DNA from: Vibrio mimicus CAIM 602
GTDB lineage: Bacteria > Pseudomonadota > Gammaproteobacteria > Enterobacterales > Vibrionaceae
Direction of reading: 5' to 3'
DNA length: 64,000 nucleotides
NCBI RefSeq assembly: GCF_000338875.1
Contig: NZ_AOMO01000088.1
Location: 62,001 to 126,000 of the forward strand
Under the pieces are notes generated by a model that did no database searches, was not told the origin of the DNA, and saw nothing but the letters and a program-made list of their open reading frames with translations. The first letter of the stretch is position 1. Each line of letters starts with the position of its first letter. Both the position numbers and the translations under genes were made by a program. This document shows, piece after piece, positions 28,877 to 57,147 of the stretch.

Positions 28877-28897
28877 TTGTTACTGATTGAATTTTGA

Positions 28898-37996: not shown

Positions 37997-38363
37997 GGGG
38001 CTGATTCAGGATTCGACGGGAATTTTGCAGTCTGAGGTGCATGCCGAGGTGCGGTAGGCCTCGTTAACAAACCGCAAAAAAATAGTCGCAAACGACGAAA
38101 ACTACGCACTAGCAGCTTAATACCCTGCTTAGAGCCCTTCCTCCCTAGCTTCCGCTTGTAAGACGGGGAAATCAGGAAGGTCAAACCAAATCAAGCTGGC
38201 GTGGATTCCCCCACCTGAGGGATGAAGCGTAAGATTTAATTCAGGTTAGCCATTCGTTAGCGTGTCGGTTCGCAGGCGGTGGTGAAATTAAAGATCGACT
38301 AAGCATGTAGTACCAAAGATGAATGGTTTTCGGACGGGGGTTCAACTCCCCCCAGCTCCACCA
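37997..38363 (+). ncRNA. ssrA: Transfer-messenger RNA (tmRNA, SsrA)
   Basis: The RNA begins GGGGCTGATTCAGGATTCGA and ends GTTCAACTCCCCCCAGCTCC-ACCA, giving the tRNA-Ala-like acceptor and T arms. The tag reading frame at 38088-38120 reads GCA-AAC-GAC-GAA-AAC-TAC-GCA-CTA-GCA-GCT-TAA, that is ANDENYALAA, the typical gammaproteobacterial tag. The 3' end of ssrA is the attachment site of the VPI-1 pathogenicity island in toxigenic V. cholerae. Here the end is intact and no integrase follows. Confidence 0.98.
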
Positions 38364-38370
38364 AATCATT

Positions 38371-38398
38371 AAAAAAGACACCCTCGGGTGTCTTTTTT
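38371..38398 (+). terminator. Terminator after ssrA
   Basis: AAAAAAGACACCC-TC-GGGTGTCTTTTTT hairpin with U-tract, eight bases after the CCA end. Confidence 0.92.
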
Positions 38399-38469
38399 GT
38401 TATCTAGAGAACAATCGTCGACAACGTGACATTTATTGCTGTCGTTTTTATCGCTCTGGTGCTTGTTGG

Positions 38470-41400
38470 CTAGCGCTGCGCGATGGAATGCTTCTTAAAA
38501 TTCTCCGCCTGCTCTAGCACGTTCTTGTATACCTCATCATTTGCTACTGGTGGGAAACCAAAACGGTGTAGCAAAAGAATCAGATCGACTTTCAATTTGG
38601 CTTTGATGTCATCACGATTACTCCAATCTGGATATTGTGCGGTGTCATCTACCACGACCTTCATCTCCTTGGCTAACTCAAGCATTCGGTGATCGTCGTA
38701 AGTAAAATGATACTTCTCGCACATGTGCACCAAGATATCGAGGAACGCCTTCTCTTCCATATCGATACCGAACTCTTCAAACGAAGCCATTTCAGTTTTG
38801 ATGTCGTAGATCATGTCGGTCATCATCTGACTAAAGTTGTCGAACTCTTCACCATTGAGCACATCGTTTTCTTTGCGCTCGTTGTACTGGTCCACCAGCG
38901 CCTTGAAACGTTTTGAAAAATCGATCCCCTGCAACTGGTTCACCTTCTTAAAATCGCTGATGGCCTTTTCGAGCATCTTTTGCAACAGCTGCATCTTGGT
39001 GTTCGGCAGTTTGATTTTGTTGATGCGCTCCATGTACTCATCATCAAAAATGTCGATGGTTTCTGCTTGGTCATCGCCCAGAGTGAAGATTTCCTCTACT
39101 CCTTCGGCACGCAATGCCTCAGCAATCATTTCACGCACACGCTTATTCATCTGCGCTGTATCGGGGGCGTTACCTTTGGTCAGCTTGAACACGATTGAAC
39201 GCACCGCAATGTAGAAATGAATGCGTTCGCGTTCATCCTGTGTAATGTCCTCACTGCCTACGCAAATGTCGTACGCCGCTTTTAGGCGCTTCACTAAGCC
39301 CATAAAACGCAGCTCAATCTTCTTGGTTTGCAGCGCAAACTCGGCAGCTTGGTTTAAGCACTCCAACTGCTTAACCGGTTCGCCACTGAAGTAATCACGA
39401 CTGTCGAACGTGTGAAACATCTGCGCCAGCAAGTGAAGATGATTACGCACCTCAATCAATGACTGACGGATATCCTCAAAATTGGATTTATCCGCTTTGG
39501 AGTACATCGCCAGCGCCTGATTCATGCGTGATTTAATGCCGATGTAATCGACCACCAGCCCTTTGTCTTTCTCTTCAAATTTGCGGTTAACCCGTGAGAT
39601 GGTCTGGATCAGGTTGTGCTTTTGTAGCGGCTTGTCGATGTAGATCGTATCCAGCTCCGGCACATCAAAGCCGGTTAGCCACATATCGACCACGATGGCG
39701 ATTTTAAAATTCGATTTCGCGTTCTTAAACTGCTTATCCAGCTCCTTGCGGTAGTCCTTGGTCTTGAGCAAGGCGTACATCTCGGCTTTGTCATCTTGGC
39801 CGCGAGTCATCACCATATTGACCATCGGCAGCGGCATTAACTCTTCTTTGTCTTTCTCGGTTAGCTCGACGCCATCAATTGCCTGCTTTTCCTCGAACCA
39901 CTCAGAGCGCAGCACTTTCACGTTTTTGTAGAACTCATAGGCAATTTCACGGCTGGCACAGACAAACATCGCTTTGCCTTTAATCGTGGAGCCTTCCGCA
40001 ACACGCTTTTCATAGTGAGTCACAAAATCTTTGGCCAGCTCGGCAATGCGGTCAGGGTCACCCAAAATCGCGTTCATATTGGCCGAGGCTTTCTTACTCT
40101 CATCAATCTGGTGTTCGTTGGCCCCAAGCCGTTCGCATTCCTCGTAGTATTTTTCGATCTCTTCCAATTTACTGTTATCGAGAATCACCTTGGCCGCACG
40201 GCCTTCATACACAATGCGTACCGTAATGCCGTCATTGACTGCTTCAGTCATGGTATAGGTATCAATCTCAGGGCCGAACACATCCAACGTGGCGTCAATC
40301 GGCGTTCCGGTAAAACCCACATAGGTGGCATTGGGCAGAGAATCATGCAGGTACTTAGCAAAACCATAGGTTTTCTTGATGGTGCCTTTTTCCTGATCGA
40401 TGGTGATTTTCAGGTCGAGGTTAATCTGGCTGCGGTGCGCTTCATCGGAAATACAGACCACGTTGCAGCGGTCCGTCAGCAGTTTGATGTCTTCGGTAAA
40501 CTTGTGAATGGTGGTGAGGAACACACCGCCACTGGCGCGCCCTGCCAATTTATCACGCAGATCCTGACGGCTGGAGACAGGTTGAATGACGTCATCGCCA
40601 ATGTAGGCGGTGGCCTTACAAAACTGCTTGGAAAGCTGATCATCCAAGTCATTACGATCGGTGATCAGCACAATGGTTGGGCTTTCAAAATCGACCGACT
40701 TCATCAACAGGCGCGCCAGAAACTGCATGGTGTAGCTTTTGCCACAGCCCGTTGCGCCAAAATAAGTACCGCCTTTACCGCTGCCACCCATGTTGTTGCC
40801 GCTAGCATCTAACTCTTTGCGTTCTTTTTTGATGTTGTAGTAAAGCTTACGGGCGGCGTAATACTGCGGGTAACGGCAGCACAGCTTCTCCTCTTTTTTG
40901 CTGGTATCAGGGAAGAAGATGAAGTTTTTGATCACATCCAACAGGCGGGTTGGGTGAAATAGCCCTTGGAGCATAGTATAGAGAGCGTTGATGCCCTCTT
41001 TCTCAGTTGATTCATGGCCGGTGATTTTGCGCCATGCGTAGAAAAATTCGTAGGCGGAAAACACGTTGCCCATTTTATTGTTCACGCCATCACTGATGAT
41101 GCACAGCGCGTTGTAAACAAACAGCTTGGGAATATCGCGGCGGTAGCGGTTGTGTAACTGATCCCACGCATTATAGGTGGTGGCGGCTTCTTCACGTACC
41201 GCGGATTTAAACTCAAACACCACCAGCGGCAAACCGTTGACGTACAAAATCGCATCCGGTTTGCGCTTTTGCTGATCTATCCCTTCGATTTCTAGCTGAT
41301 TGACTAAACGGTAGCGGTTATTGTCAGCCTCGATAGTATGAATGCCATCAACAAACATTGCCGCCAGTTTTTGGGGCAGCGCCTCAATATCCAATAGTTG

Positions 41401-41742
41401 AATATGAAGATCTTTTTGCGTGTGATCCGCACGCTTGAAGTAGAAGCCATTACCCAGCCAATGACAGAAGGTTTTGTTGCTCTGGTACAGATCACTCGCG
41501 GGCAGGGTTTGCACTTGGCGGAGAATGGTTTCAATCTCGCCGCTCGTGATGCCGTCTGCCTTGTACTGCTCAGCAAGGTAATGGCGCAGGTCATCGAGGA
41601 TCAACACTTCCGCCTCATTCGCGCGCGGTACATCGCTGCCAACATAATGCGGGTACACCTGCTGGCCGGAGGTGGTGTGGTGCTCACCCAGTAAGCTGAT
41701 GATGGCCTGTTCCAGTTTTGCTTCTGTGAATGTATGGCTCAT
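38470..41742 (-). CDS. hsdR: Type I restriction endonuclease subunit R (HsdR)
   Basis: A 1090-residue HsdR. The N-terminal nuclease region has the PD-(D/E)xK motif KPDAILYVNGLPLVVFEFKS (about 162-181). The motor part has Walker A FGATGCGKSYTMQF (about 328-341), the DEAH box SDEAHRSQ (about 432-439), VGFTGTPID and the motif V-VI region DMWLTGFDVPELDTIYIDKP then QTISRVNRKF. The C-terminus is helical. It translocates DNA and cleaves unmethylated targets together with HsdM and HsdS. It is last in the leftward hsdM-hsdS-hsdR set, 70 bases after hsdS. Confidence 0.96.
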   Translation of the reverse strand: MSHTFTEAKLEQAIISLLGEHHTTSGQQVYPHYVGSDVPRANEAEVLILDDLRHYLAEQYKADGITSGEIETILRQVQTLPASDLYQSNKTFCHWLGNGFYFKRADHTQKDLHIQLLDIEALPQKLAAMFVDGIHTIEADNNRYRLVNQLEIEGIDQQKRKPDAILYVNGLPLVVFEFKSAVREEAATTYNAWDQLHNRYRRDIPKLFVYNALCIISDGVNNKMGNVFSAYEFFYAWRKITGHESTEKEGINALYTMLQGLFHPTRLLDVIKNFIFFPDTSKKEEKLCCRYPQYYAARKLYYNIKKERKELDASGNNMGGSGKGGTYFGATGCGKSYTMQFLARLLMKSVDFESPTIVLITDRNDLDDQLSKQFCKATAYIGDDVIQPVSSRQDLRDKLAGRASGGVFLTTIHKFTEDIKLLTDRCNVVCISDEAHRSQINLDLKITIDQEKGTIKKTYGFAKYLHDSLPNATYVGFTGTPIDATLDVFGPEIDTYTMTEAVNDGITVRIVYEGRAAKVILDNSKLEEIEKYYEECERLGANEHQIDESKKASANMNAILGDPDRIAELAKDFVTHYEKRVAEGSTIKGKAMFVCASREIAYEFYKNVKVLRSEWFEEKQAIDGVELTEKDKEELMPLPMVNMVMTRGQDDKAEMYALLKTKDYRKELDKQFKNAKSNFKIAIVVDMWLTGFDVPELDTIYIDKPLQKHNLIQTISRVNRKFEEKDKGLVVDYIGIKSRMNQALAMYSKADKSNFEDIRQSLIEVRNHLHLLAQMFHTFDSRDYFSGEPVKQLECLNQAAEFALQTKKIELRFMGLVKRLKAAYDICVGSEDITQDERERIHFYIAVRSIVFKLTKGNAPDTAQMNKRVREMIAEALRAEGVEEIFTLGDDQAETIDIFDDEYMERINKIKLPNTKMQLLQKMLEKAISDFKKVNQLQGIDFSKRFKALVDQYNERKENDVLNGEEFDNFSQMMTDMIYDIKTEMASFEEFGIDMEEKAFLDILVHMCEKYHFTYDDHRMLELAKEMKVVVDDTAQYPDWSNRDDIKAKLKVDLILLLHRFGFPPVANDEVYKNVLEQAENFKKHSIAQR

Positions 41743-41812
41743 GGCGTCCTATCTTTCTGGTTGTTCTGTTGGGTTACAACTCGCTGCTGGCGTTAAAAAC
41801 GGAAGGTGATAA

Positions 41813-43236
41813 TCACCTTTCGTTTTGTTGTTCTGCGCTGACGGCTTCCTGTTCGACTGCCAACTCGACTTCATCAAGGCGCAGTTCGCCAGAGATCAGT
41901 TTGGGGAGCAAGGTGTCGCGGAGTTTGGTTAGAGAATCCACTTCGTTGCGACTTGCGACCTTTTTATCAGCGAATGATTTAAAGGTCGCTTCAATATGGT
42001 TTGCGATAGTTAAAGGTGGCAATACTACTTGTTGTTCTGAAAGAATTTTTCTGCTCAGTTCCGTTTGTCCAGTACTGCCTTCGCCTAGACGCTCCACTCT
42101 ATTTTCAATTGAAAGCAACAATTGCCCAAAGGTATACATAGGCAGATGTCGCTGTTCACGCGAACTAGTGTGACGTGTGAATCAACTACTGTTGGCTCAG
42201 GTATATATGTCACTTGGGCCATTCGGCCTAGGGTTCCTACGCCTGTTGAGTTTACTAACACATCGCCTAGTTGAACTTCGCGGCCATCAACCTTCCTCAG
42301 TTCTGGGTTGTTTCTGCGGGCAAGGTCGTAGTTCACTTCATGGTTTCGTATACATTTCTGGTTGATAACTTTAATGCCACCTTCCTCAATGTACTTTGGT
42401 GATATTCCGCGGCGTAGTTCGACGCACATATCACCAAGCATTGTTACCTCCCACCCCTTCGGCACCCAGCCCAGCTCACTTTCTTCAAACGCATCAGGGA
42501 ACAGTTGGCGCACATCGTCCGGCAGTGGATTGAAGCCTTCACTTTCACGCACCGCTTGGCGCGCCTCGGCGCGGTGTTGCAGTTCGTCGGGGATTGGGTT
42601 GCCTGCATCCAGCGCGTTATCCATCACAGGGTCGAAATCGACGAACCATGACTTAAACAGCGCCTGCGCCATTTGCTCCAGCGTCTGGTTGATTTGGCGG
42701 TTTAGGGTGATTTTGTTGTCGAGACTCTCGAGTAGGTTTGCAATGCCAGTTTGAACACTTACTGGTGGTTTGGAAACCTCGAAATCCTCAATCATGCCCT
42801 TTGTAAGCGCATTTCTTGTAGCGCCCGCACTAGCAAGATTGAGCAGTAGTTTTTGTGTTTTAGGGCTGGCTAGCAGGTAACGCAAAAATCTCGCGTCAAA
42901 TTCTGCTGCATTAGGTCGGATTATTGCTACGTGCTGGTTAACTCGAGCAGGCAAAAAATCACTTGGTGCCAAGCAAACACGCGCAACAGAGTCTCCTGTA
43001 ATGTTGAGTAATACATCGTTCTTCTCTACTTCAACATTTTTGAGCTTCGTTGCTGCAATATCGTCGATATATACCAGACCACTTTCACTGAAGCCTTCGT
43101 TATAAATGTTTTGGCTGCGAATTAAGCAGACATCACCAAGATCCAGATAAACGCTGCTTCCACCTTTAGGTGTGGCACCACTACCAATTTTCTTGCAGTA
43201 ATCTCCCAGTTTAACGATCGGCCAATCACTCCCCAT
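41813..43236 (-). CDS. hsdS: Type I restriction-modification specificity subunit (HsdS), frameshifted in this sequence
   Basis: The gene starts at 43236 (MGSDWPIVKLGDYCKKIGSG) and overlaps the hsdM stop by 11 bases. The first target-recognition domain (about 5-165), the central conserved helix (LDNKITLNRQINQTLEQMAQ, about 172-191) and the start of the second recognition domain (GWEVTMLGDMCVELRRG) are visible. Around 42140 the frame breaks after RVNSDIC and resumes as MYTFGQLLLSIENRVERLG. One extra C restores a 474-residue protein, the normal HsdS size. The break may be a sequencing error; if real, recognition would be lost or altered. Confidence 0.9.
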
Positions 43237-44824
43237 AACCCAACGCCTCCATATTGGCGCGGATCGCTTTGTCGAGGGCTTCGGCCTCGTCCATTTGGCG
43301 ATACAGAGTCTGGGTCAGCTCAAGCATTTTGGTTTCAAACGCAATGCCGTCATCTTCCAAATCCGCTGCGCCCACATAGCGCCCCGGTGTCAGCACAAAG
43401 TCATTGGCTTTGATATCGCTAATGGTCGCCACCTTGCAGTAGCCTGCAACGTCTTCGTAATGCTCAACGCTGATTTCGTTGGCGTTGATGCGGCGGGCCA
43501 GTTCAGTTTCGTCACAGCGCCAAGCATGAAACGTGTCGGCAATCTTGGCTATATCGTCACGGGTCAGCTCTTTGTGTACACGGCTGACCATGGTGCCCAT
43601 TTCACGGGCGTCGATAAACAGGGTTTCACCGCTGCGATCACGGTAGCCATATTTGGGGTTGGCCTTCTTGTTTTTGGTCATAAACCACAGGCAAACCGGA
43701 ATTTGCGTGGTGTAGAACAACTGCCCCGGCAGGGCAATCATGCACTCGATGCGGTCATCCTCAATCAACTTTTGGCGGATTTCGCCTTCGCCACTGGTGT
43801 TGGAACTCATTGAGCCATTGGCCAGTACAAAGCCTGCGGTGCCGTCTTCAGAGAGTTTCGACAGCATGTGCAAAATCCACGCGTAGTTGGCGTTGCCTGT
43901 TGGCGGGGTGCGAAAGCCGTTAAAGCGCGGATCGTCGGTCAGCTCGGCATCATTACGCCAATCTTTGAGGTTAAACGGCGGGTTGGCCATGATGAAATCA
44001 GCTTTGAGATCAGGGTGCTGATCGGCAAAAAAGGTGTCCGCTGGGCGCTCGCCAAGGTTGCCCGTGAGACCACGGATCGCAAGGTTCATTTTCGCCAGTT
44101 TGAAGGTGGTGGTGGTCAGCTCCTGCCCGTAAATGGCGATGTCTTTACTCTTGCCCTGATGGCTTTCCACAAACTTTAAACTTTGCACGAACATACCGCC
44201 TGAGCCGCAGCATGGGTCGTAAATTTTGCCTTGGTAAGGTTCGAGCATTTCAGCCAGCAGAGTAACGACAGACTTTGGCGTGTAGAACTCGCCGCCACCT
44301 TTGCCTTCGGTTGCCGCAAAACGCCCAAGAAAGTATTCATAAACACGGCCGACTAAGTCTTCTTCAGTCATGTCGCATTCGTTGGCAAGCGTATCAATGT
44401 TTTCAATCGCATCAATCAGGGAGGCGAGCTTTTTAGTCTCCAGCCCCATGCGCGAGAAGTAGTTATCCGGCAGTGCGCCTTCAAGCGCTTTGTTTTTGCT
44501 TTCAATCGCTTTTAAGGCGCTGTCGATGATGAGGGCTATATCATCTTGCTTGGCGCGCGCTTTCACAAAGAACCAACGTGCATTGTCTTCAAGGAAAAAC
44601 ACGTTGTCTTGCTGGTAAAATTCCGGCATTTCAACAAATGCTTCCATCCCGCCTTCAATCAACTGTTGACGTTTGGCTTCAAATTTGTCGCTGATGAATT
44701 TGAGGAACACAAGGCTAAGTACCACGTGCTTGTATTCGGACGACTCGACACTGCCACGCAGTTGGGTTGCGGTATCCCACAGGGTTTCTTCAAAACCTTT
44801 CTTATTGGTTGGTGCTTTGGCCAT
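43226..44824 (-). CDS. hsdM: Type I restriction-modification methyltransferase subunit (HsdM)
   Basis: A 532-residue N6-adenine DNA methyltransferase. The N-terminal helical domain (MAKAPTNKKGFEETLWDTAT) is followed by the SAM-binding motif DPCCGSGGMFVQSL (about 202-215) and the catalytic NPPF motif in ADFIMANPPFNLKDW (about 273-287). I start at ATG 44824, since the upstream extension to 44884 covers the promoter. It methylates host sites together with HsdS and protects the chromosome. It is first of the hsd genes and has its own likely promoter. Confidence 0.95.
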   Translation of the reverse strand: MAKAPTNKKGFEETLWDTATQLRGSVESSEYKHVVLSLVFLKFISDKFEAKRQQLIEGGMEAFVEMPEFYQQDNVFFLEDNARWFFVKARAKQDDIALIIDSALKAIESKNKALEGALPDNYFSRMGLETKKLASLIDAIENIDTLANECDMTEEDLVGRVYEYFLGRFAATEGKGGGEFYTPKSVVTLLAEMLEPYQGKIYDPCCGSGGMFVQSLKFVESHQGKSKDIAIYGQELTTTTFKLAKMNLAIRGLTGNLGERPADTFFADQHPDLKADFIMANPPFNLKDWRNDAELTDDPRFNGFRTPPTGNANYAWILHMLSKLSEDGTAGFVLANGSMSSNTSGEGEIRQKLIEDDRIECMIALPGQLFYTTQIPVCLWFMTKNKKANPKYGYRDRSGETLFIDAREMGTMVSRVHKELTRDDIAKIADTFHAWRCDETELARRINANEISVEHYEDVAGYCKVATISDIKANDFVLTPGRYVGAADLEDDGIAFETKMLELTQTLYRQMDEAEALDKAIRANMEALGYGE

Positions 44825-44885
44825 AATTCTAATTTCTATACTACTTTTGGTGAGCTGTGCTGTTGTTTGCCACTCAGGAGGCACG

Positions 44886-44913
44886 ATTATATAGGAAGCT
44901 GATGCGGTGAAAA
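44886..44913 (-). promoter_or_regulatory. Likely sigma-70 promoter for hsdMSR
   Basis: On the minus strand TTTTCA is followed after 16 bases by a perfect TATAAT, ending 62 bases upstream of the hsdM ATG. It lies in the 147-base gap after the helicase gene, so the hsd genes need not depend on helicase read-through. Confidence 0.65.
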
Positions 44914-44971
44914 TGATTTGGCTGCGATTTTAGGCGATAACGCCTCAAAATGAACCACCGCAGCCAGCCGA

Positions 44972-47900
44972 TTAAGCGAGTGCTTCCTCTGGCGTATCAA
45001 CCACAGTGCTCTGGTAAAGCTCCGGTGTTTCTAGGAGTGCATTGGCTTGGCAGAAGTGATCCAACCCTGCCCAAATCTTCTTAGAACCGACGATATAAAC
45101 CTGTTTTTTCGCCCGAGTGACCGCCACATTCAGGATGTTGGCTTTGCTCGCAGCCCAGTAAGCGGAGCCTTTGGTCGATTCGGAAACCCCCAGCACAAAG
45201 ATCACGGCTTTTTCTTCTTTGCCTTGGAAAGTGTGCACGGTACCAATGCGGCCCTTGCTCCACTTTTTCACCTCTTCCTCTGAGATCCCTAGCTGCGTTA
45301 AATAATCCGGTAGAGCTTTGCGTACACCATCGGCGACTTTTCTAAATGGGGAGATGATGTACACATCCGGTAAGGTTTGAGTAGCTTGGTAATGGGCAAA
45401 CAACATCTTCGCCACACAGCGGCCTTGGTTAGGGACATAATGCTTGCCATCCGTTTCACCGGAAACATCAAGCCACGCACTTTGCCCCCAGACGTGGTGC
45501 GCGACGCCTTCCGGCGATTCATTACCGTGGAACATTTTTTCGTTATAAGCCACTTTATTGGCGATGCTGAACATGGGTTCATCACAACGGCGATGTACAC
45601 GCAGCGGGCTTCCCAACCACTCACCTTTGGCGATCATCTGCGTGCCGTAACGGTTGACTCGGTCGGCCAGCCTTTGCACTGAGGTTTTGGTCGGTGACCA
45701 TGTGCGCCACTCTTCTTCGCCCAGCATCTCTTTGGCAAACCCTTCCACAAATTCAGGTGGAATGGTGAAGACGGGTTCAATTTGCAGTGGATCGCCAACC
45801 ACAACCACTCGCTTAGCGCGATAAAATGCGCCAACGGCTTGTTGCGGTGAGGCTTGTCCAGCTTCATCCACAAATAACCAGCCAATATCTTCTTTGTCCA
45901 ATTTAGAGAACTGACGCGCCACCGAAGCAAAGGTGGATGAGACTACAGGAATAAACATAAACAGCCACTGCCACATCACCTTGCTTAATTTAGGATCAGC
46001 AATTTTATTGGCTAATACTCGATTGAGATGGTACAGCACACCACCATCCGAACTCGACAAGCTAAACTGATCATACATGCTGGCAATCCATACTTGATGA
46101 AGCTCTATCGCTTTCGTTGTGAGATCGGCTCGCTTCTGGTTTAGCTCCACTCCGTGACCAAAGGCGCTGCGCTGCATGTCCGCATTTTCTAAGTCGGCTA
46201 CGCCATCATCAAACGTGACATCGTGGTATTTGGATTGAAAATCTCGACACTGCTCAATCTGCCTTTCTAATTCCGATTTGAAGTTAGCGACTTTGCGTGT
46301 CATCAAGCTTTTTTCTTTACAGAAATGCACATAACGCGCGTGCATTTTGGTTACGCGTAACCTTGCGAACCAAAACTCTGGTAAGAAAAACAGTAAGTAA
46401 GGCAACTGTTTATTCTTCAAACGGCTAACAAATGTATCCAACTGAAGGCAGCGATACTCTAAGCGTGCCAGCTTTTGCTCATAATCCTGCAGGCAACGTT
46501 TCTTCGACTCAATGAACTGTAATTCTTTCAATTCAGTCAAACACTGTTTTAGCTCTTGTTCTGCTTGGATAAATTCTTGCTGAGCACTGCTAAAGGCTTT
46601 ATGAACGTCCACAGATTTATTGGCTTGTGCTTTTATGGACTCAAAAAGGGTTTGGTAACCTTCCGCACCGATCTCTACATCAAGATTTTCCGGTTTCAAA
46701 AAGAACAGGCTGTCATTAACGACTTTGCGATTCGTCTGATTACCAATCGCTGCCGCCATTACGCCCCAACAATCTTCTTTTGGTTTCAAGCTCTTAAGCT
46801 TTACCTTGCCTTGATTATTCTTGGGATAAACATGCTTTGTTGCTAATTTTTGGGCGGCGGTTTTAAAGAACTCGACACTTTGGTAACGCTCACCCAATGC
46901 CTTGGATTGAGGTAACTCTTTGGTGATATTTTCTACTGCGGTGTTATTGCTTGATACCACCACCATCTCGTATCCGGTCAATAGAGGATTTAACACCGGA
47001 ATGGTTACATTCTTATCTGCAATCTCCGTTTTCATGATAGAGGAGACCGAATCGGCAATCGAGCTGAGATTGGCAATGGCTCGCGCACGACACACCAAGT
47101 TATTGGCAATAATGTCGCGCAGCATGGTGGTTTTACCGGTTCCCGGAGGCCCATTTACCGAGTAAACACCTTGGTCGGTAAGCTCTTGGTAAAGCGTGTT
47201 GATCGCAAATTGCTGCATCAAGCTCATTGAATATTTATCTTCACCTAACCAACGACCTTTCGGGGTCATATCCAGTGATAGATGTTTGCGGATCAGCGAT
47301 TGCCCCTCTTTCGATAACAGATCGCTTTCCCGTTGTGGAACATCGCCAAGGTAAGCTGCCAACGCAGAATCTGCAGCAATTTCACCTTTGCGTAATTGTT
47401 CAATGACTCGCTCAATATCTCGAATATAGAAACTGTTTAGGATCGCTATCGTCGGCTTAGCAGAACTGCCACTCGCTTGAGGAAGTTCAGTAACGTCAGG
47501 TTGAGTGGTGTTTTCTTCCCTATATTTTTCAATATGCTGTGAAAGATCGGACAGATCGGGTAACGCACTCAAACTGTAATCAGGAAGTGCTGGTTTAGGC
47601 TCATTGGGTCGGTGCTTTTGGCGCACTAATTCAATCAGCATAAAAGGAATGGGTTTATCCGATGTGGGTTGAAAGTTTGCCCATTCTCCAATTAGCTTGG
47701 TAAATTCCAGCAGTTCATAGGTAGTCAATACATTGAGGTACTTACGCTCATGCTTGATGTTGTTCGCAACGATACAAACCTCTTTCAACTTCTCGCATAG
47801 CTCTTGGCTTTGGTTATCGAAGTCTCTGAGTTTTAACTCATGTAACTGCTTGTTTTGCGTTTTGCCAATCGCCCATGGAGCGGTTGAGATTTGTGTTTTC

Positions 47901-48283
47901 TCTAAATCAATCTTGCCATCTTGATCCACTTCAAGAATGACTGAACAAGTCCACCCCGAATCTGAATTTCGCTCATCGTTGTCTAATGCGTTTTCTGCAT
48001 CATTCGGAAAATACTGCTTACCCGCCTCAAAGATTTCTGAACGATGAAATAAGCCTAAGTAGACTTTATAGGTGTAACACTCGGTCGGTAAGTATTTCTC
48101 CGAGGCTCGACGAATATGGCTACGGTTTATCCACGGCAAACAATCCGGCACGCTTAACTCTTGCGGGGAATCGTAATGGATCGCCCCATTCCCTTTCTTC
48201 GAAATCTTTCCCAGATCTGCTGAATTAAAAAATTCTATTTTGTGCCAATACTCAAGAATATTAAGCGATTGATTTGGATTCAT
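44972..48283 (-). CDS. Large superfamily 1 (UPF1/DNA2-like) helicase, probable defence protein
   Basis: A 1103-residue protein. Residues 1-350 form an N-terminal region I do not recognise (start MNPNQSLNILEYWHKIEFFN). Walker A GPPGTGKT is at 378-385. A coiled-coil, Lys-rich insertion lies at about 540-680. Walker B is DEAGQ (805-809), motif III VVVGDPLQIEP (about 825-836), motif V GTVHTFQGKEEKAVIFVLGV (about 1014) and motif VI NVAVTRAKK (1052-1060). The order is that of AAA_11/AAA_12 helicases such as UPF1 and DNA2. No nuclease motif is evident. It lies just upstream of hsdMSR on the same strand, which suggests phage or plasmid defence. The exact role is unknown. Confidence 0.85.
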   Translation of the reverse strand: MNPNQSLNILEYWHKIEFFNSADLGKISKKGNGAIHYDSPQELSVPDCLPWINRSHIRRASEKYLPTECYTYKVYLGLFHRSEIFEAGKQYFPNDAENALDNDERNSDSGWTCSVILEVDQDGKIDLEKTQISTAPWAIGKTQNKQLHELKLRDFDNQSQELCEKLKEVCIVANNIKHERKYLNVLTTYELLEFTKLIGEWANFQPTSDKPIPFMLIELVRQKHRPNEPKPALPDYSLSALPDLSDLSQHIEKYREENTTQPDVTELPQASGSSAKPTIAILNSFYIRDIERVIEQLRKGEIAADSALAAYLGDVPQRESDLLSKEGQSLIRKHLSLDMTPKGRWLGEDKYSMSLMQQFAINTLYQELTDQGVYSVNGPPGTGKTTMLRDIIANNLVCRARAIANLSSIADSVSSIMKTEIADKNVTIPVLNPLLTGYEMVVVSSNNTAVENITKELPQSKALGERYQSVEFFKTAAQKLATKHVYPKNNQGKVKLKSLKPKEDCWGVMAAAIGNQTNRKVVNDSLFFLKPENLDVEIGAEGYQTLFESIKAQANKSVDVHKAFSSAQQEFIQAEQELKQCLTELKELQFIESKKRCLQDYEQKLARLEYRCLQLDTFVSRLKNKQLPYLLFFLPEFWFARLRVTKMHARYVHFCKEKSLMTRKVANFKSELERQIEQCRDFQSKYHDVTFDDGVADLENADMQRSAFGHGVELNQKRADLTTKAIELHQVWIASMYDQFSLSSSDGGVLYHLNRVLANKIADPKLSKVMWQWLFMFIPVVSSTFASVARQFSKLDKEDIGWLFVDEAGQASPQQAVGAFYRAKRVVVVGDPLQIEPVFTIPPEFVEGFAKEMLGEEEWRTWSPTKTSVQRLADRVNRYGTQMIAKGEWLGSPLRVHRRCDEPMFSIANKVAYNEKMFHGNESPEGVAHHVWGQSAWLDVSGETDGKHYVPNQGRCVAKMLFAHYQATQTLPDVYIISPFRKVADGVRKALPDYLTQLGISEEEVKKWSKGRIGTVHTFQGKEEKAVIFVLGVSESTKGSAYWAASKANILNVAVTRAKKQVYIVGSKKIWAGLDHFCQANALLETPELYQSTVVDTPEEALA

Positions 48284-48631
48284 TTTTAATGCCTAGCCTG
48301 ATCGTTATTTGGGTGAAAGCTTTTACCTGCCCGTGGGGGAGGTGATTAAATTAGGTTCTTACCTCACCTTGGGAAATCAGCTCTCACGGCCGTGATATAG
48401 GCGGCATTGTATTAAATAAGCAATTTTTTGCACTGAAATAACATTATTTTTGTTCAGTCATTAACAAAATAAAGGGAATGCTATTTGGTTATCAACCTGA
48501 TGAAAATATTGGATTGCCTCCTTAATCCCCCAACACCTGCTTACAATTAACCCAGCCAGCCGCCATCAATGAGCTTGAGTCAAACCGCTTCATTCGTATA
48601 CTGAGCGCTCAGTTAATAGGAAGTTGTTCGT
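48284..48631. other. Right flank of the accessory block, non-coding
   Basis: A 348-base gap upstream of the helicase (leftward) and the membrane-protein gene (rightward). It is AT-rich at 48405-48500, where the promoters probably lie. A perfect 12-bp palindrome CTGAGCGCTCAG sits at 48601-48612. I looked for a second copy of the ssrA 3' end that would mark an integration boundary and saw none. Confidence 0.6.
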
Positions 48632-49315
48632 ATGAAATCCAACCAAAGCTTATTCAGTAATGTGCTGATCAACATTGTTATCCCTGTGGTGATTTTGAGC
48701 AAAATGAGTGGCGAAGATAACCTAGGCCCAACGTGGGCATTGGTGGCGGCTTTAGCCTTCCCACTGCTGTTTGGTGTTTACAGTTTTATTCAAGAGCGCA
48801 AAGTTAACTTTTACTCAGCGCTGGGCATGGTAAGCGTGTTGCTCACCGGTGGCATTGGCTTGCTGCAACTCGACCCTGCTTATATTGCGATTAAAGAAGC
48901 CGCGATTCCGGGGCTGATTTTCGTGATTTTGGTAGTGGGTAACTTGATTGGTTATCCGCTAGTGCGCAAAATGCTGCTCAATGAAGATATTGTCGATCAC
49001 GACAAGCTGCACGGCGCGTTAAGCACGCCAGAGAAGAAGGCGGAATTTGAGCGTCGGGTGAATGTCAGCTCTTATCTGATTGCGTTTTCGTTTTTTGTTT
49101 CAGCCGTACTCAACTATGGTCTAGCGAAGTGGATTGTCAAAAGCCCTGCGGGCACTGAAGCCTTTAACGAAGAGATCGGTAAGATGACGGCGCTAAGTTT
49201 CCCGGTGATATCACTGCCGGTGACCATTTTGATGATGGGCGCGCTGTTCTATCTGTTTAGAAGCCTGTCTAGCATTACAGGTCATAAGATGGAAGATTTT
49301 CTGCGTAGCAAGTAA
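48632..49315 (+). CDS. Six-helix integral membrane protein, septation-protein-A-like
   Basis: A 227-residue hydrophobic protein with about six membrane helices (around residues 8-24, 33-53, 60-80, 88-110, 145-172 and 190-215). The pattern VVILSKMSG early and LVVGNLIGYPLVRKMLLNED in the middle is reminiscent of IspZ/YciB-like membrane proteins and of the conserved Vibrio hypothetical proteins often called VC0xxx-type membrane proteins. Substrate or role is unknown. A palindrome just upstream may be an operator. It is the first core gene right of the accessory block. Confidence 0.7.
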   Translation: MKSNQSLFSNVLINIVIPVVILSKMSGEDNLGPTWALVAALAFPLLFGVYSFIQERKVNFYSALGMVSVLLTGGIGLLQLDPAYIAIKEAAIPGLIFVILVVGNLIGYPLVRKMLLNEDIVDHDKLHGALSTPEKKAEFERRVNVSSYLIAFSFFVSAVLNYGLAKWIVKSPAGTEAFNEEIGKMTALSFPVISLPVTILMMGALFYLFRSLSSITGHKMEDFLRSK

Positions 49316-49382: not shown

Positions 49383-50999
49383 TTATTCGCCTGCGAACTG
49401 CGCCACCATATCACGCGCGACCGCTTCCGCGACTTTGATGCCGTCAATCCCTGCCGACAAAATACCGCCCGCATAACCGGCACCTTCACCGGCTGGGTAG
49501 AAGCCTTTCAGGTTGATGCTTTGGAAATCTTTGCCGCGCTTGATGCACACCGGTGAAGAGGTACGCGTTTCTACGCCCGTTAGCAAACCATCTTCTGAGG
49601 CAAAGCCTTTGATTTGGCGATCAAACGCCGGAATCGCTTCACGAATCGCTTCAACCGCAAAGGCAGGCAGCGCTTTGGAAAGATCCGTCAGCTTGATACC
49701 CGGTGTGAAAGAAGGCTGCACGTCACCCAGTTCACTTGGGTTACGGCCTTTCAGGAAATCACCGATTTTCTGCGCTGGTGCATCGTAAGTTTCGCCGCCC
49801 AGTTTATAAGCATTAGCTTCCAGTTCACGTTGCAGACGAATGCCCGCCAGCGGATCGCCTGGGTAATCTTGCTCAGGCGAAATGCCGACTACAATGGCGC
49901 TGTTGGCATTACGCTCAGCACGCGAATATTGGCTCATGCCGTTGGTCACCACGCGGCCTTCTTCAGACGTTGCCGCCACTACCGTGCCACCCGGACACAT
50001 ACAGAAACTGTACACCGTGCGGCCATTTTTACAATGGTGTACCAGTTTGTAGTCTGCGGCTCCCAGAATTGGGTGGCCCGCACTTGGTCCAAAACGCGCT
50101 TCATCAATCATGGATTGCTTGTGCTCAATTCGGAAGCCGACCGAGAAAGGCTTGGCTTCCATGTACACGCCGCGATCGTGCAGCATCTCAAAGGTATCAC
50201 GCGCGCTGTGACCCACCGCGAGCACGACATAACGAGATTTGATCTCTTCACCGTTCGATAGCGTCACGCCAGTGATTTGACCATCTTGACTATGGATGTC
50301 ATCGACACGCGTGCTAAAGCGAATTTCGCCGCCCAGTTCGATGATTTTCGCGCGCATTTTTTCAATCATGGTCACCAGTTTAAAGGTACCGATGTGCGGC
50401 TTACTCACATACAAAATCTCTTCTGGCGCGCCCGCTTCAACAAACTCGGTGATCACTTTGCGGCCGTAGAAGTTGGGATCTTTCACTTGGCTGTACAGCT
50501 TACCATCAGAAAACGTACCTGCACCGCCTTCACCAAACTGCACGTTAGATTCGGTATTCAAAGTACGCTTACGCCAAAAGCCGAAAGTATCTTTGGTACG
50601 TTCACGCACTTCTTTACCGCGCTCAACAATGATCGGATTAAAGCCCATTTGTGCCAGCACTAAACCAGCAAACAGGCCACAAGGACCAAAACCAATCACC
50701 ACTGGGCGCTCAGGTAGGTTTTCAGGTGCTTTGGCGACAAATTTGTAGGACATATCCGGAGTTGGGCGCACATGCTGATCTTTGCTGAACTTGGCGAGCA
50801 GCTTTTCTGGGTTCGCCACTTCAACATCAACGGTGTAAATCAGTTGGATATCGTTTTTTTTACGAGCATCGTAGCCACGTCTAAACAGATTGAAAGAGAG
50901 GACTTGCTGAGCAGGAATTTTCAGCTTGGCAGCAATGGCATCAAGCAGCGCGCCTTCCTCATGGTTGAGGGGCAGCTTAAGTTCAGTTAAACGTATCAT
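49383..50999 (-). CDS. NAD(P)/FAD-dependent oxidoreductase
   Basis: A 538-residue flavoprotein. An N-terminal extension (about 1-95) precedes the dinucleotide-binding motif VIGFGPCGLFAGLVLAQMGF (about 100-119). VQFGEGGAGTFSDGKLYSQV (about 155-175), a C-type FAD motif (RYVVLAVGHSARDTFEML) and the C-terminal GFYPAGEGAGYAGGILSAGI (about 498-517) follow. This architecture is the COG2509 group of uncharacterised FAD-dependent dehydrogenases. The substrate is unknown. It is divergent from the ferredoxin gene, which could be a redox partner, but that is inference. Confidence 0.88.
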   Translation of the reverse strand: MIRLTELKLPLNHEEGALLDAIAAKLKIPAQQVLSFNLFRRGYDARKKNDIQLIYTVDVEVANPEKLLAKFSKDQHVRPTPDMSYKFVAKAPENLPERPVVIGFGPCGLFAGLVLAQMGFNPIIVERGKEVRERTKDTFGFWRKRTLNTESNVQFGEGGAGTFSDGKLYSQVKDPNFYGRKVITEFVEAGAPEEILYVSKPHIGTFKLVTMIEKMRAKIIELGGEIRFSTRVDDIHSQDGQITGVTLSNGEEIKSRYVVLAVGHSARDTFEMLHDRGVYMEAKPFSVGFRIEHKQSMIDEARFGPSAGHPILGAADYKLVHHCKNGRTVYSFCMCPGGTVVAATSEEGRVVTNGMSQYSRAERNANSAIVVGISPEQDYPGDPLAGIRLQRELEANAYKLGGETYDAPAQKIGDFLKGRNPSELGDVQPSFTPGIKLTDLSKALPAFAVEAIREAIPAFDRQIKGFASEDGLLTGVETRTSSPVCIKRGKDFQSINLKGFYPAGEGAGYAGGILSAGIDGIKVAEAVARDMVAQFAGE

Positions 51000-53281: not shown

Positions 53282-54222
53282 TCAGTGGCGCACTTTAAAT
53301 AGCTGCACTAATTCATGGATCAGCCAAGTTGCAGCCAATAAATCAGCGCTGCCGCCGGGGCTTAAGTGTTTTTCAATCAGAACATGATCAAGTGACGTGA
53401 GTGCTTGCTCAATTTCTTGATATAAGAAGCCACCTTTCGCCAACAGTTGTTGGGCTTGTCCTTGCACAAAACGTAGCCCTTCTAATCCACCGCGTGAAAC
53501 AAGATTGCTGTCGTTGTTGTTGGCCATCAGTACCAACAAGGTATGCCACAAGGCTTGTTCGGTACTTGCTCCTTGCGCCAAACAAGTTTGATACGCTGGC
53601 AGCGCATGTTGCGTCACCATAGCAAGGCCAGATGCAGCCTCACCTCGTGCTCCCGTAAAACCGTATTGGCGATATATGCGTTCACCCGCAGTTTCAGGTT
53701 CGCAATCACGCTTCGCTTTTAGCTCATCGATAACCAAAAACTGGCACGCTTGGCGAATGGTTTCACCAATATGCAGCGCATCAATTTTTAGCTGATTGGC
53801 TTTTAGCCACCCCACCGAGCCGCAAATAAGCCCCAAGATGAAAATCATCCCTTTGTGGTATTCACCCCTTTCGTGGCATTGAACATCGCTTGCTCGGCTT
53901 CAATGCCAATCGGGCGTAGCGATGTCAGTAACTGAGCCGCCGGATTTCCCGCACTCTCCCAACCAGCACTCACAAAAGAGTGCAGATAAGGCACAATCGC
54001 CTCGGCACTGACAATAAAAGTGTTGAGATCCATATCACGGTGCGCGCCATTATTGACGGTATCCACCAGACCCGGTTTAGGGGTGAGATGAACCTCTAAC
54101 ATCATGGCATGGTAAGCCAGATGCCCCACTAAACGGGGCAAGCTGAAGGTCTTTGAACCTGAAGAGGAAGAAGCTTGGCTGGGCAGTTCAAGCAAGAGAT
54201 CAAGCGCAGCAGGTATAGTCAT
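53282..54222 (-). CDS. citG: Triphosphoribosyl-dephospho-CoA synthase (CitG), frameshifted in this sequence
   Basis: CitG makes the prosthetic-group precursor of citrate lyase from ATP and dephospho-CoA. The first part starts at 54222 (MTIPAALDLLLELPSQASSS), has the family motif TPKPGLVDTVNNGAHRDMD (about 47-65), and stops at 53845 after GVNTTKG. The rest (MIFILGLICGSVGWLKANQL onward) is in another frame. The family has NTHKG here. One extra C in CCC gives ACC-CAC-AAA-GGG and a 313-residue protein. The two parts overlap as ATGA, so coupled translation of two fragments is possible, but an error is more likely. Confidence 0.9.
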
Positions 54223-54735
54223 GCGTCATCTCCTCAATTTTAGCCAATAAGGCTTCGACACTGTGCCGCCGTGAGCGAGCACAGATCACGGCATCTCGTT
54301 CACACAGCAGGCAGCGCCTTCTCGGCAACTGCGCACCTTGGCGCGAGATAATATGTCCATCGACATCAATCACATCCAGATCCATCAGTCGTCCCAGCGG
54401 GTGCTCGCGTTCAATCTTCATCATGCTTTTTTCAGCATGCTGGCCGACGGAGCCTGAATCACCAGAAACGCTTCCGGTCCGGTTTTTTCCACCAACAACT
54501 GACAAGCCACTTGCGGCCAACCCGTTTTCTGACACTGCTCTTGAATGGCACGAATACCTGCATCCATCACGGTTTGGCTGGCAGCGTTGAGCTTAAGCGA
54601 GCCCGGCATGTTAACCGTGAAAGAAACCAGAGGCAGTGAATGGCGTTTTAGCCACTCACCTTGTTGCCGAACCCGCACTTCTTTACGCAGAAGGAGCTGG
54701 TCCAGACTGACTGAAAGATCCGGATGGTGACTCAT
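54200..54735 (-). CDS. citX: Apo-citrate lyase phosphoribosyl-dephospho-CoA transferase (CitX), frameshifted in this sequence
   Basis: CitX attaches the prosthetic group to the acyl carrier subunit CitD. The first part starts at 54735 (MSHHPDLSVSLDQLLLRKEV) and stops at 54421 after MLKKA. The second part (MMKIEREHPLGRLMDLDVID, then RRRCLLCERDAVICA) is in the minus-1 frame. The break lies on six A in the message (54427-54432). Seven A, or a minus-1 slip on AAA-AAA-G, gives MLKK-S-MMKIE and a 178-residue protein that aligns without gaps to E. coli CitX. It may be an error or genuine recoding. Confidence 0.9.
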
Positions 54736-56261
54736 AGGCTTTTTACCTGCTTGATAACATCAATGATCGAACCGTCACGGTAGTGAACAAAGGCAACGGT
54801 CTTGTCTTCGAATTCCAGCGCTTGAGGTTTGCCAGTGAGCAACTCCGCACGCTGTTGCAACGCTTCAATATCAACCACTGGGAGTTGCGCCGCGATAAAG
54901 CGCTCCTTCAATTCAGGGCGGTTAGGGTTTACCGCGATACCTTGATCCGTCACCAGCACATCTATGGTCGCCCCCGGAGTGATGACGTTGGTGACTTTCT
55001 CGACCACTGTCGGAATACGGCCACGCACTAAAGGCGCAACAATCATCGACAAATTTGCCGCCGCAGCCGTGTCGCAGTGGCCGCCGGATGCGCCGCGAAT
55101 TACGCCATCAGAGCCGGTGATCACATTGACATTAAACTGGGTATCAATTTCCAGAGCGCTGAGGATCACCACATCCAGCCGATCCACCGCCGCACCTTTC
55201 GAGCTTGGGTTGGCGTACTCATTGGCGGAAATTTCGAGATGATGCGGATTGCGCGCTAAAGAGCCCGCCGCCACCGAATCGAAACACTGCACATCGAGCA
55301 AGTAATCAATCAGCCCCTGTTCATGCATTTCCACCATAGTCGCAGTGATACCACCGAGAGCAAAGGAGGCGCGGATGTCTTGGCGCAGCATCTTCTCTTT
55401 CAAAAAGCGCGCAACCGCGAGCGATGCGCCGCCCGAACCCGTCTGCATTGAAAAACCATCATAGAAATAGCCTGAATGTTCGATGACTTCTGCGGCGCGT
55501 TTGGCAATCAACAGTTCGCGTGGATTGGTGGTCATTCGCGTGGCATCACCACCGATTTTACTTGGATCGCCCACTTCGGCCACTTGCACGACTGCATCGA
55601 CGCGGTCTTGAGTAATGGAGGCTGGGAAATTCGGGAAACAGACGATCGCTTCAGTCAGCATCACCACTTTTTCAGCATGTTCGGCATCGACTTTGGCATA
55701 GCCGAGTGAGCCACAATTGGATTTGCCTTTAAAGCCATTAGCGTTGCCAAATTCATCACAGCAAGGTACGCCAATAAACGCCATGTCGATATACAGCTCA
55801 CCACTTTGGATTAGATGTACACGACCACCGTGGGAGTGAATATGTACAGGCTCATCCAATAAGCCATGGGAAATGCTGTCGGCCAGCGCTCCGCGGATAC
55901 CTGAGGTGTAAATCTTGCTCACCACGCCATTTTTGATGTGTTCAATCAAAGGCGAGTGACAAGAGGTGAGCGAGCTCGACGCCAGAGTAAGGTTTTTAAT
56001 GCCCAATTCGGCAATCACGTCCATCACTAGATTGACGGTTTTATCGCCGCCACGAAATGCATGGTGGAAAGAGATGGTCATACCATCTTTTAAGCCAAGA
56101 TCGACAATCGCTTCGCGGATCGAGCTTTTCACTTTGCGACTTTTTTTGGCTTGCTCATCGTACAAATGCGGCGTGATCGCGTGAGCTTGGGTATAAGGCG
56201 TCAACGCATAGCGTTCCACTTCCAGCACAGACAGAGGGTTATTTAATGTATTGATACTCAT
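54732..56261 (-). CDS. citF: Citrate lyase alpha subunit (citrate:acetyl-ACP transferase)
   Basis: A 509-residue CoA-transferase-like subunit. It starts MSINTLNNPLSVLEVERYAL at ATG 56261. Landmarks are GMTISFHHAFRGGDKTVNLV (about 78-97), FIGVPCCDEFGNANGFKGKS and the C-terminal VTDQGIAVNPNRPELKERF (about 447-465). It swaps the acetyl group on the CitD prosthetic group for citrate. It overlaps citX by 4 bases. Order citC-D-E-F-X-G is that of the classical operon. Confidence 0.96.
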   Translation of the reverse strand: MSINTLNNPLSVLEVERYALTPYTQAHAITPHLYDEQAKKSRKVKSSIREAIVDLGLKDGMTISFHHAFRGGDKTVNLVMDVIAELGIKNLTLASSSLTSCHSPLIEHIKNGVVSKIYTSGIRGALADSISHGLLDEPVHIHSHGGRVHLIQSGELYIDMAFIGVPCCDEFGNANGFKGKSNCGSLGYAKVDAEHAEKVVMLTEAIVCFPNFPASITQDRVDAVVQVAEVGDPSKIGGDATRMTTNPRELLIAKRAAEVIEHSGYFYDGFSMQTGSGGASLAVARFLKEKMLRQDIRASFALGGITATMVEMHEQGLIDYLLDVQCFDSVAAGSLARNPHHLEISANEYANPSSKGAAVDRLDVVILSALEIDTQFNVNVITGSDGVIRGASGGHCDTAAAANLSMIVAPLVRGRIPTVVEKVTNVITPGATIDVLVTDQGIAVNPNRPELKERFIAAQLPVVDIEALQQRAELLTGKPQALEFEDKTVAFVHYRDGSIIDVIKQVKSL

Positions 56262-56271
56262 GAGATGACCT

Positions 56272-57147
56272 TTAGTGTTTGATGCCGGATTCAGCACGTT
56301 GCAGTGTCCAACGCGCGCGTTCGATGATGGGTCCATCGACCATTTTGCCGTTGAGAGAGACTACGCCCAGCCCTTTCGCTGCCGCTTCTTCGGCGGCTTC
56401 GATAACCGCGATGGCGTGATCGACCTCTTTTTGCGTTGGGGCAAACACGTTATGCAGCAGGTCAATCTGGCGAGGGTTAATCAGTGACTTGCCATCAAAA
56501 CCGAGCTGCTTGATGTGCTCCGCTTCACGCAAAAAGCCTTCTTCGTTGTTGGCATCGGAATACACGGTATCAAACGCCATAATCCCGGCGGCACGCGCCG
56601 CTTGCAGAATGGAGCAGCGCGCAAACAGCAGTTCAATGCCTTCCGCAGAACGTTGAGTACGCAGATCGCGCACATAGTCTTCCGCACCAAGAGCAATCCC
56701 AATCAGACGGCGTGAGCTAAAGGCAATCTCAACCGCATTGTTGATCCCTTGTGCGGTTTCAATCGCGGCCAACATGCGAGTACTTCCGACTTCGCGCCCG
56801 CATTCACGCTCGATCTGCTCAATGACTTTTTCCATCTCAATCACATCGTTCGCGTTATCGGTTTTCGGCAAACGCACCACTTTGGCTCCACCGCGCACCA
56901 CGGCATTGAGATCTTTGATACCAAATTCAGAATCGAGAGGATTCACCCGCACCACTGTTTCAATCTCTTGATACATAGGGTGTTGCAGCGCATGAAACAC
57001 CAACATCCGCGCGGTGTCTTTTTCACGTAGCGCGACCGAATCTTCCAGATCGAACATGATGGAATCAGGTTGATAGATAAAGGTATTACTGAGCATGGCG
57101 GCATTCGCGCCCGGCACAAATAACATACTGCGACGAAGTTTGGTCAT
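56272..57147 (-). CDS. citE: Citrate lyase beta subunit (citryl-ACP lyase)
   Basis: A 291-residue HpcH/HpaI-type aldolase-fold protein. It starts [20 protein letters not shown] at ATG 57147, with [20 protein letters not shown] (about 34-53), [11 protein letters not shown], the conserved glutamate in [18 protein letters not shown] and [15 protein letters not shown]. It cleaves citryl-ACP to oxaloacetate and acetyl-ACP. It overlaps citD by 4 bases (ATGA), and its stop is 10 bases before citF. Confidence 0.96.

What the first reader, a model, noticed from the sequence alone, without database searches (positions are those of the whole stretch)
38364..48631. VPI-1 integration locus (next to ssrA) holds a helicase plus type I restriction-modification cassette instead
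Seen: ssrA has an intact 3' end and is followed by hsdR, hsdS, hsdM and a large SF1 helicase, all leftward, then core genes. There is no integrase, transposase or TCP gene. Known: in toxigenic V. cholerae the 41-kb VPI-1 island integrates at this ssrA site. Inference: this is a non-toxigenic lineage whose site carries a defence cassette, which may compete with VPI-1 for the same hotspot.
Basis: partly seen in the sequence, partly recalled or inferred. Interest (0 to 1): 0.75.

Follow-up and report, generated by a model that had tools for sequence, protein, structure and literature searches.

The report
Restriction cassette beside vacant VPI-1 site
In this relative of the cholera bacterium, the chromosomal spot where a well-known virulence island can insert is empty, and just beyond it lies a neighbouring spot whose DNA-restriction genes differ from species to species, here a damaged type I system plus an unusual helicase.

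Summary
In detail: ssrA is intact and is followed by leftward hsdR, hsdS, hsdM and an SF1 helicase; no integrase, transposase or pilus gene was seen. Missed: hsdS is frameshifted near 42,140. In G149 an island of the VPI-1 integration type sits inside the ssrA 3' end, and the terminator that follows ssrA in the window lies beyond it; after that comes a second slot, bounded by a VC0807-family gene. The window's cassette fills the second slot and its attB is vacant, so it does not replace VPI-1. Both slots are filled in G149 and G211. All five closest genomes, window included, carry restriction genes in slot 2: type I plus helicase, type IV PLD-helicase, McrBC-like, or a mosaic; an outgroup's slot is nearly empty. 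The helicase is Upf1-like and stands beside type I genes in 8 of 18 closest foreign loci and in two other Vibrio, overlapping hsdS by ATGA in five halomonads. It resembles Mokosh MkoC but lacks its nuclease. Known kind, new variant.

The parts
37997..38363 (+). ssrA (tmRNA), tag ANDENYALAA; its 3' end (38338-38363) is the VPI-1-type attB
   Evidence: single copy of the 3' end; second copies in G149, G211 and G049
38364..38370 (+). AATCATT, att-adjacent bases, identical in G091 and at the distal att of G149
38371..38398 (+). ssrA terminator; in G149 the same terminator lies beyond the island, after the distal att copy
38401..48526 (.). slot 2 (restriction-exchange slot), 10.1 kb here; no nucleotide match to the slots of the six comparison genomes
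38470..41742 (-). hsdR, 1090 aa (HSDR_N, SWI2/SNF2, T1RH-like_C)
41813..42139 (-). detached C-terminal part of hsdS in a shifted frame (108 aa)
42085..43236 (-). hsdS, truncated by a frameshift near 42,140 (383 aa)
43226..44884 (-). hsdM, 552 aa from GTG (an ATG 20 codons inside, at 44824, is also possible); overlaps hsdS by 11 bases
44972..48283 (-). Upf1-like SF1 helicase, 1103 aa, with two long helices (560-624, 635-678) and an N-terminal part for which no solved relative was found
48632..49315 (+). VC0807-family membrane protein (NF041646), outer border of slot 2
49383..50999 (-). neighbouring gene (FAD-dependent oxidoreductase by eye, not scanned), 98-99.6% identical in G091, G092, G149 and G211 over the length fetched

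Best explanation
The locus has two adjacent insertion slots. Slot 1 is the integrase target in the ssrA 3' end, used by VPI-1-type islands; it is vacant here. Slot 2 lies between the ssrA terminator and the VC0807-family gene. No integrase match and no ssrA-end copy marks its far side, and its contents differ from genome to genome, most likely swapped by homologous recombination through the conserved smpB-ssrA and VC0807 flanks after DNA uptake (inferred). In the window, slot 2 carries a type I restriction-modification operon preceded by a Upf1-like helicase. Shown: borders, vacancy of attB, contents, the hsdS frameshift, and recurrence of helicase plus type I genes elsewhere. Inferred: the helicase is an accessory defence ATPase that translocates on nucleic acid and backs up, or works with, HsdR; because hsdS is broken, restriction and modification are probably both lost or altered, while the helicase frame is intact.
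For: Gap between ssrA and the VC0807-family gene: G000 10.3, G091 5.2, G092 4.0, G149 33.8, G211 6.8, G032 23.2, G049 2.9 kb. Distal att copy plus terminator beyond the ssrA-proximal module in G149, G211 and G049. Right-flank homology starts within window 48520-48531 in G091, G092, G149, G211 and G032, and at 48570 in the more distant G049. Two GIVchS12 primers match G149 exactly; both published 'within VC0816' primers match G211 with one mismatch each, beside its integrase remnant and left of its distal att (PMC5109276 passages). PMC6458141 (passages): a non-toxigenic O139 strain keeps VC_0809-VC_0816 while lacking VC_0817-VC_0848. Slot 2 contents. G091 is a mosaic: bases 1-1518 match the G149 type (95%), 1359-5017 the G211 type (94%), meeting in a 160-base stretch shared by all of them. 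Helicase with type I genes.
Against: One genome per species only, so swapping is seen between species, not between strains. The terminator beside slot 2 has two alleles: the window's stands in G091 and at G149's distal att; another one stands in G092, G032 and at the distal att of G211 and G049, and a near copy of it stands next to G149's ssrA on the island side, so the left border has itself been reshuffled. G032 has 23 kb of other genes (ORF inspection only) and no second att was found there. Recombination inside the slot is shown only for G091. The window's cassette ends hold no trace of how it came. Helicase function was not tested; 10 of 18 close foreign loci lack type I genes. The frameshift could be an assembly error (120-contig draft).
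Confidence: 0.75

Rival explanations
1. One reading: the cassette occupies the VPI-1 site itself and competes with VPI-1.
For: Same neighbourhood; the four closest other genomes lack the cassette.
Against: The attB and its terminator are undisturbed; slot 1 and slot 2 are filled together in G149 and G211.
Confidence: 0.06
2. The cassette came in as an ssrA island with an integrase and later lost integrase and one att.
For: In G051, G045 and G040 an intact 412-416 aa integrase next to ssrA is followed by type I genes; in G051 also by a related helicase. The six HsdR genes found within 25 kb downstream of ssrA all point towards ssrA.
Against: No second att in the window; the cassette starts beyond the terminator that in G149 marks the outer side of the island; sister genomes also have contents without integrase there.
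Confidence: 0.17
3. The helicase is a self-standing defence gene that merely shares the slot with a type I system.
For: 10 of 18 close foreign loci have no type I gene in the stretch fetched (some are cut by contig ends); Photorhabdus L058 has the helicase (95%) and the two following genes (95, 93%) of L057 without the hsd genes; 16 of 18 Vibrio genomes with an HsdR at least 70% identical lack it.
Against: Type I genes beside it are on the same strand in the cases; ATGA overlap of hsdS and helicase in five of five halomonad type I loci; partners from different HsdR families; the association is denser in this subfamily, 8 of 18 against 3 of 62.
Confidence: 0.45

Closest known systems
GIVchS12 / VPI-1-type ssrA islands (PMC5109276, passages)
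   Same: Same chromosomal neighbourhood; ssrA 3' end as att; defence cargo (CRISPR-Cas) in GIVchS12
   Different: Window has no integrase, no att pair, and its cassette lies outside the island boundaries
Type I restriction-modification of VPI-2 with embedded tgvAB (PMC11411939, passages)
   Same: Type I hsd operon in a Vibrio variable region carrying extra defence genes
   Different: Other island (VPI-2); the extra genes there are GmrSD-like type IV subunits, here a Upf1-like helicase
Mokosh (MkoC / MkoA) helicases
   Same: PADLOC MkoC profile matches residues 348-1070 at 3.6e-74; SF1 helicase core
   Different: No PLD nuclease domain, no kinase domain by Pfam; the match ends at profile position 946 of 1136 and the protein has only 33 residues beyond it
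Upf1 / Sen1 / Senataxin / Ighmbp2 / Aquarius / Dna2 helicases
   Same: Nearest solved folds (Foldseek 1.6e-14; VIA Z 14.6-16.9)
   Different: Identity 10-19%; coronavirus nsp13 and UvrD rows score nearly as high (Z 13.8-16.6, fewer aligned residues); the window protein has its own N-terminal part and long helices

Membership tests
Type I restriction-modification system | HsdR with nuclease and SNF2-like translocase domains | tested here: met
   HSDR_N, SWI2_SNF2, T1RH-like_C above Pfam cut-offs; TIGR00348 above cut-off
Type I restriction-modification system | HsdM N6-adenine methyltransferase | tested here: met
   N6_Mtase and HsdM_N above Pfam cut-offs; TIGR00497 below its cut-off
Type I restriction-modification system | intact HsdS with two recognition domains and conserved C-terminal region | tested here: not met
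   frameshift near 42,140; pieces in two frames. So: a type I locus, probably defective, not a shown active system
VPI-1-type ssrA integrative island | integrase next to ssrA | tested here: not met
   no integrase at the site; best own-genome match to the G149 integrase is 42% on another contig
VPI-1-type ssrA integrative island | att repeats at both ends | tested here: not met
   single copy in the window
VPI-1-type ssrA integrative island | TCP cluster | tested here: inconclusive
   none seen in the interval; the genome search for TcpA gave 0 of 7 but was silent in all 14 controls
Mokosh type II (MkoC) | COG1112-like SF1 helicase core | tested here: met
   PDLC03924, 348-1070
Mokosh type II (MkoC) | C-terminal PLD nuclease in the same protein | tested here: not met
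   no PLD hit, no room in sequence or model. The defining features of Mokosh are recalled, not taken from a call
Mokosh type I (MkoA/MkoB) | kinase domain and separate PLD gene | tested here: not met
   no kinase or PLD hit among the six ORFs scanned; defining features recalled

The most novel reading that the evidence does not exclude
Two linked claims: (a) the cholera clade has a dedicated exchange slot for restriction systems, without its own integrase, directly beside the VPI-1 attB, so that island entry and restriction barrier are neighbours and can be exchanged together by one recombination event across ssrA; (b) a family of Upf1-like helicases is a recurrent modular partner of several different type I restriction systems and forms with them an unrecognised two-layer defence.
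Probability: 0.35. Interest if true: 0.62.

Novelty: new variant of a known kind. Interest (0 to 1): 0.45.

Why it matters
It corrects the map of a medically important integration site: beyond ssrA lie two slots, not one, and a restriction cassette there says nothing about room for VPI-1. A restriction slot beside the island entry site makes it testable whether local restriction type affects which lineages acquire islands. The helicase is a candidate accessory of type I restriction with no assigned function.

Tried and rejected
Competition with VPI-1 for one site: rejected because G149 and G211 fill both slots. Mokosh membership: rejected, no PLD or kinase domain in the window protein; the MkoC match also stops short in five further helicases. 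Hna (listed): set aside, described as a superfamily II helicase-nuclease (PMC12445080 passages). Repeats at the cassette ends: only weak two-copy matches. Promoter and terminator scan: counts no higher than in shuffles. N-terminal part alone: Foldseek gave nothing below E 9; a missing match does not show a new fold. Plasmid and phage search for the helicase: 3 of 621 matching plasmid records (all Vibrio) cover 80% or more of it, 33-34% identical; two of these three contexts were read and list no type I genes, in an incomplete gene table; 3 phage records hold partial matches. Literature on the VC0808-VC0816 stretch or on a type I-linked Upf1-like helicase: searches listed no description of either as stated here, apart from PMC6458141 (passages). 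Passages of PMC12839542, PMC1489950 and PMC8609355 gave nothing that bears on it. Naming the window's species: not achieved; the one genome-contig scan went to the helicase and may leave out the window's own records.

Interrupted genes in slot 2: three of five closest genomes (G000 hsdS; G091 type IV in 293+653 aa pieces; G149 McrC-like in 513+302 aa pieces); sequencing errors were not excluded.

Full report
Check of the observation. ARAGORN places ssrA at 37997-38363 with a complete 3' end. The ORF list and the Pfam, NCBIfam and PADLOC scans confirm hsdR (38470-41742), hsdM (43226-44884) and a 1103-aa SF1 helicase (44972-48283), all leftward, then a VC0807-family membrane protein (48632-49315, +). 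hsdS is in two frames. The first 383 residues end at 42085 and the C-terminal part continues in the frame 42139-41813; PADLOC profile PDLC03086 runs 3-352 in one piece and 364-456 in the other, and four of five HsdS relatives align across both frames, the fifth only in the first. Since HsdS is needed for both restriction and modification (PMC11411939, passages), the type I system is probably inactive or altered, unless the assembly is wrong here.

The site. ssrA was found in 224 of 227 genomes of the genus and a VC0807-family gene in 149 of 227. I compared positions by eye; one search lists places for only part of the genomes. Among those listed, the two genes lie within 34 kb of each other in seven: G000 (window), G091, G092, G149, G211, G032 and G049. 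For G103, whose ssrA place was not listed, the stretch left of the gene holds no tmRNA. The gaps are 10.3, 5.2, 4.0, 33.8, 6.8, 23.2 and 2.9 kb. ssrA identity to the window is 98-100% in all but G049 (95%), and the VC0807-family protein is 98% identical in G091, G092, G149 and G211. I call G000 and these four the cholera clade; that label is inferred, since no call names them. In 10.9-11.5 kb of near flank the window is 94.0, 93.9, 92.4 and 90.7% identical to G091, G092, G149 and G211.

Two slots. BLASTN of the window's 37.9-49.4 kb against the six others shows a second copy of the ssrA 3' end in G149, G211 and G049, at the far side of the ssrA-proximal module. In G149 that copy is followed by the very terminator that follows ssrA in the window (AATCATTAAAAAAGACACCCTC...); the terminator now next to G149's ssrA is another allele. 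Taking G149's island out in thought gives the window's sequence up to the end of the terminator. The picture is not wholly tidy: the window's terminator allele also stands in G091, but G092, G032 and the distal copies of G211 and G049 have the other allele, like the one beside G149's integrase. The G149 island has a 412-aa integrase, CRISPR-like repeats in ORF translations and T6SS-like genes (ORF inspection; not scanned by family). Of four published GIVchS12 primers, ML126 and ML130 match it exactly, ML127 and ML131 not within 3 mismatches; G149 therefore carries a GIVchS12-like island. Both primers described as 'within VC0816' match G211 with one mismatch each, beside a 123-aa integrase remnant followed by a HipA-like and an HTH gene and then by the distal att, and match none of the other loci or the window. 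Labbate et al. place VPI-1 and GIVchS12 between VC0816 and VC0848 (PMC5109276, passages); PMC8357300 (passages) reports a version of GIVchS12 at this site in 7 of 22 V. paracholerae strains. PMC6458141 (passages) reports a non-toxigenic O139 strain with VC_0809-VC_0816 but without VC_0817-VC_0848. Thus the ssrA-proximal slot takes integrase islands, and a separate slot lies beyond the terminator. The window's attB is vacant and its cassette is in the second slot.

Contents of slot 2. Homology to the right flank starts within window 48520-48531 in five genomes and at 48570 in G049. Lengths: G000 10126, G091 5017, G092 3810, G211 3808, G149 4448, G049 341, G032 23028 bases (for G032 no second att was found, so its number may include slot 1). 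G092 and G211 carry a 1046-aa PLD-DEAD-DUF3427 protein, the G092 copy matching PADLOC type IV restriction at 1e-226, the two copies 95% identical; G149 an MrcB_N AAA protein and a DUF2357-PDDEXK_7 protein in two pieces (McrBC-like); G091 the type IV enzyme in two pieces plus a 5'-truncated McrC-like gene. In all five cholera-clade genomes these genes point towards ssrA. G091 is a mosaic: its first 1518 bases match G149 (95%) and bases 1359-5017 match G211 (94%), with a 160-base stretch shared by G149, G092 and G211 at the seam. That is direct evidence of recombination inside the slot. G049 is nearly empty. G032 holds other genes by ORF inspection only. The window's cassette has no nucleotide match to the other six slots at E 1e-8 on either strand. 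Three of the five clade members have an interrupted gene in the slot.

Type I genes near ssrA in the genus. Of 73 HsdR matches at E 1e-60 or better in 66 of 227 genomes (two matches are pieces of one gene in G033), six lie within 25 kb downstream of ssrA (G000, G130, G073, G199, G045, G040), read by eye; this is a lower bound, as not all ssrA places are listed. Leaving out the window, 5 of 72 against 0.375 expected gives p = 4.5e-5 by Poisson with an assumed 4.8-Mb genome. All six point towards ssrA. G045, G040 and, with a more distant HsdR, G051 have an intact 412-416 aa integrase beside ssrA; G073 has integrase fragments; in G130 and G199 none was matched. So type I systems are also cargo of ssrA islands elsewhere, which leaves a decayed-island origin of the window's cassette possible.

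The helicase. In the genus, relatives of 58% or more occur in 3 of 227 genomes, the window's included: G000, G127, G196. In G127 and G196 the order is hsdM-hsdS-hsdR-helicase, in the window helicase-hsdM-hsdS-hsdR. Neither of those two loci has ssrA within the 20 kb fetched. Of 18 genus genomes with an HsdR of 70% identity or more, 2 have the helicase. A genome-contig scan gave 80 loci, the best of 152. Among the 18 closest (42-47%) 8 have type I genes beside it, on its strand; among the other 62, 3 do (Fisher p = 1.7e-4; one of the 62, L091, gave no helicase ORF in the script, several loci are cut by contig ends, and several loci per genus make the rows dependent). The HsdR partners differ in kind: EcoEI_R_C type in the three foreign ones scanned (Photorhabdus L057, halomonad L063, Vibrio intestinalis L105), T1RH-like in the window. 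In all five halomonad loci with type I genes (L063, L065, L066, L069, L073) the hsdS stop overlaps an in-frame helicase ATG in ATGA; in L063 and L066 the ORF caller had chosen an earlier start. On a tree of 37 chosen helicases the type I label needs 8 changes, at least 7 forced by well-supported branches; shuffled labels need 12.6 on average and reach as few in 6 of 500. The association is thus recurrent and modular, neither single-origin nor obligatory.

Structure. The AlphaFold2 model has mean pLDDT 88.9. Nearest solved folds are Senataxin, Upf1, Sen1, Aquarius, Ighmbp2 and Dna2 (Foldseek 1.6e-14 downwards; VIA Z 14.6-16.9 with about 450-515 aligned residues); coronavirus nsp13 ties in Z with 350-360 aligned residues. 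PDB profile hits are led by Upf1 and Smubp-2. Residues 560-624 and 635-678 are predicted as two long helices. The N-terminal 345 residues alone (pLDDT 86.8) gave no match below E 9. The PADLOC MkoC profile is matched by the window protein and by five of five helicases of other loci scanned, and stops about 185-190 positions before its end in each.

Mechanism, most likely. The hsd genes would label and cut foreign DNA if HsdS were whole; with the frame broken, neither function is expected in this strain. The helicase probably acts on phage or plasmid nucleic acid as an ATP-driven translocase, either backing up HsdR or acting alone; the genomic coupling favours some cooperation but does not show it. 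TgvAB inside the VPI-2 type I operon (PMC11411939, passages) is a precedent for extra defence genes within a type I locus.

What is new. Restriction systems in Vibrio islands, GIVchS12 and the separability of VC_0809-0816 from VPI-1 are in print. [quoted passage not shown] I found no description, in the searches, of the second slot as an exchange site for restriction systems or of this helicase as a type I partner. I rate it a new variant of a known kind.

Noticed in passing
window 41813-43236; L037 (G091); L040 (G149): hsdS is frameshifted; three of five cholera-clade slot-2 systems contain an interrupted gene.
   Followed up: partly
window about 21000-28900: Identity to sister genomes falls to 75-87% with a gap at 26-27 kb, against 93-96% at 30-32 kb: another variable stretch left of the locus.
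   Followed up: no
window 54000-63000: No match in the 19 kb fetched to the right of the slot in G149, while G091, G092 and G211 match.
   Followed up: no
L045 (G051), 1103-18185: ssrA island with intact integrase, a 1048-aa DEAD helicase, two HsdM, HsdS, HsdR and a Upf1-like helicase; T6SS-like genes follow in L054 (ORF inspection).
   Followed up: partly
L063:3919-4989 and L065:5219-6412: Halomonad type I operons with the helicase also carry a Fic protein (L063) or an AbiEii-like AAA ATPase and a 178-aa gene (L065) between hsdR and hsdM.
   Followed up: no
L051:12927-13811 and 13935-15062: Genes after the G127 helicase match PADLOC candidate PDC-S14 and HNH restriction models.
   Followed up: no
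L046:1248-4766 (G055): A 1172-aa helicase distantly related to the window's (22.7%) stands directly beyond ssrA.
   Followed up: no
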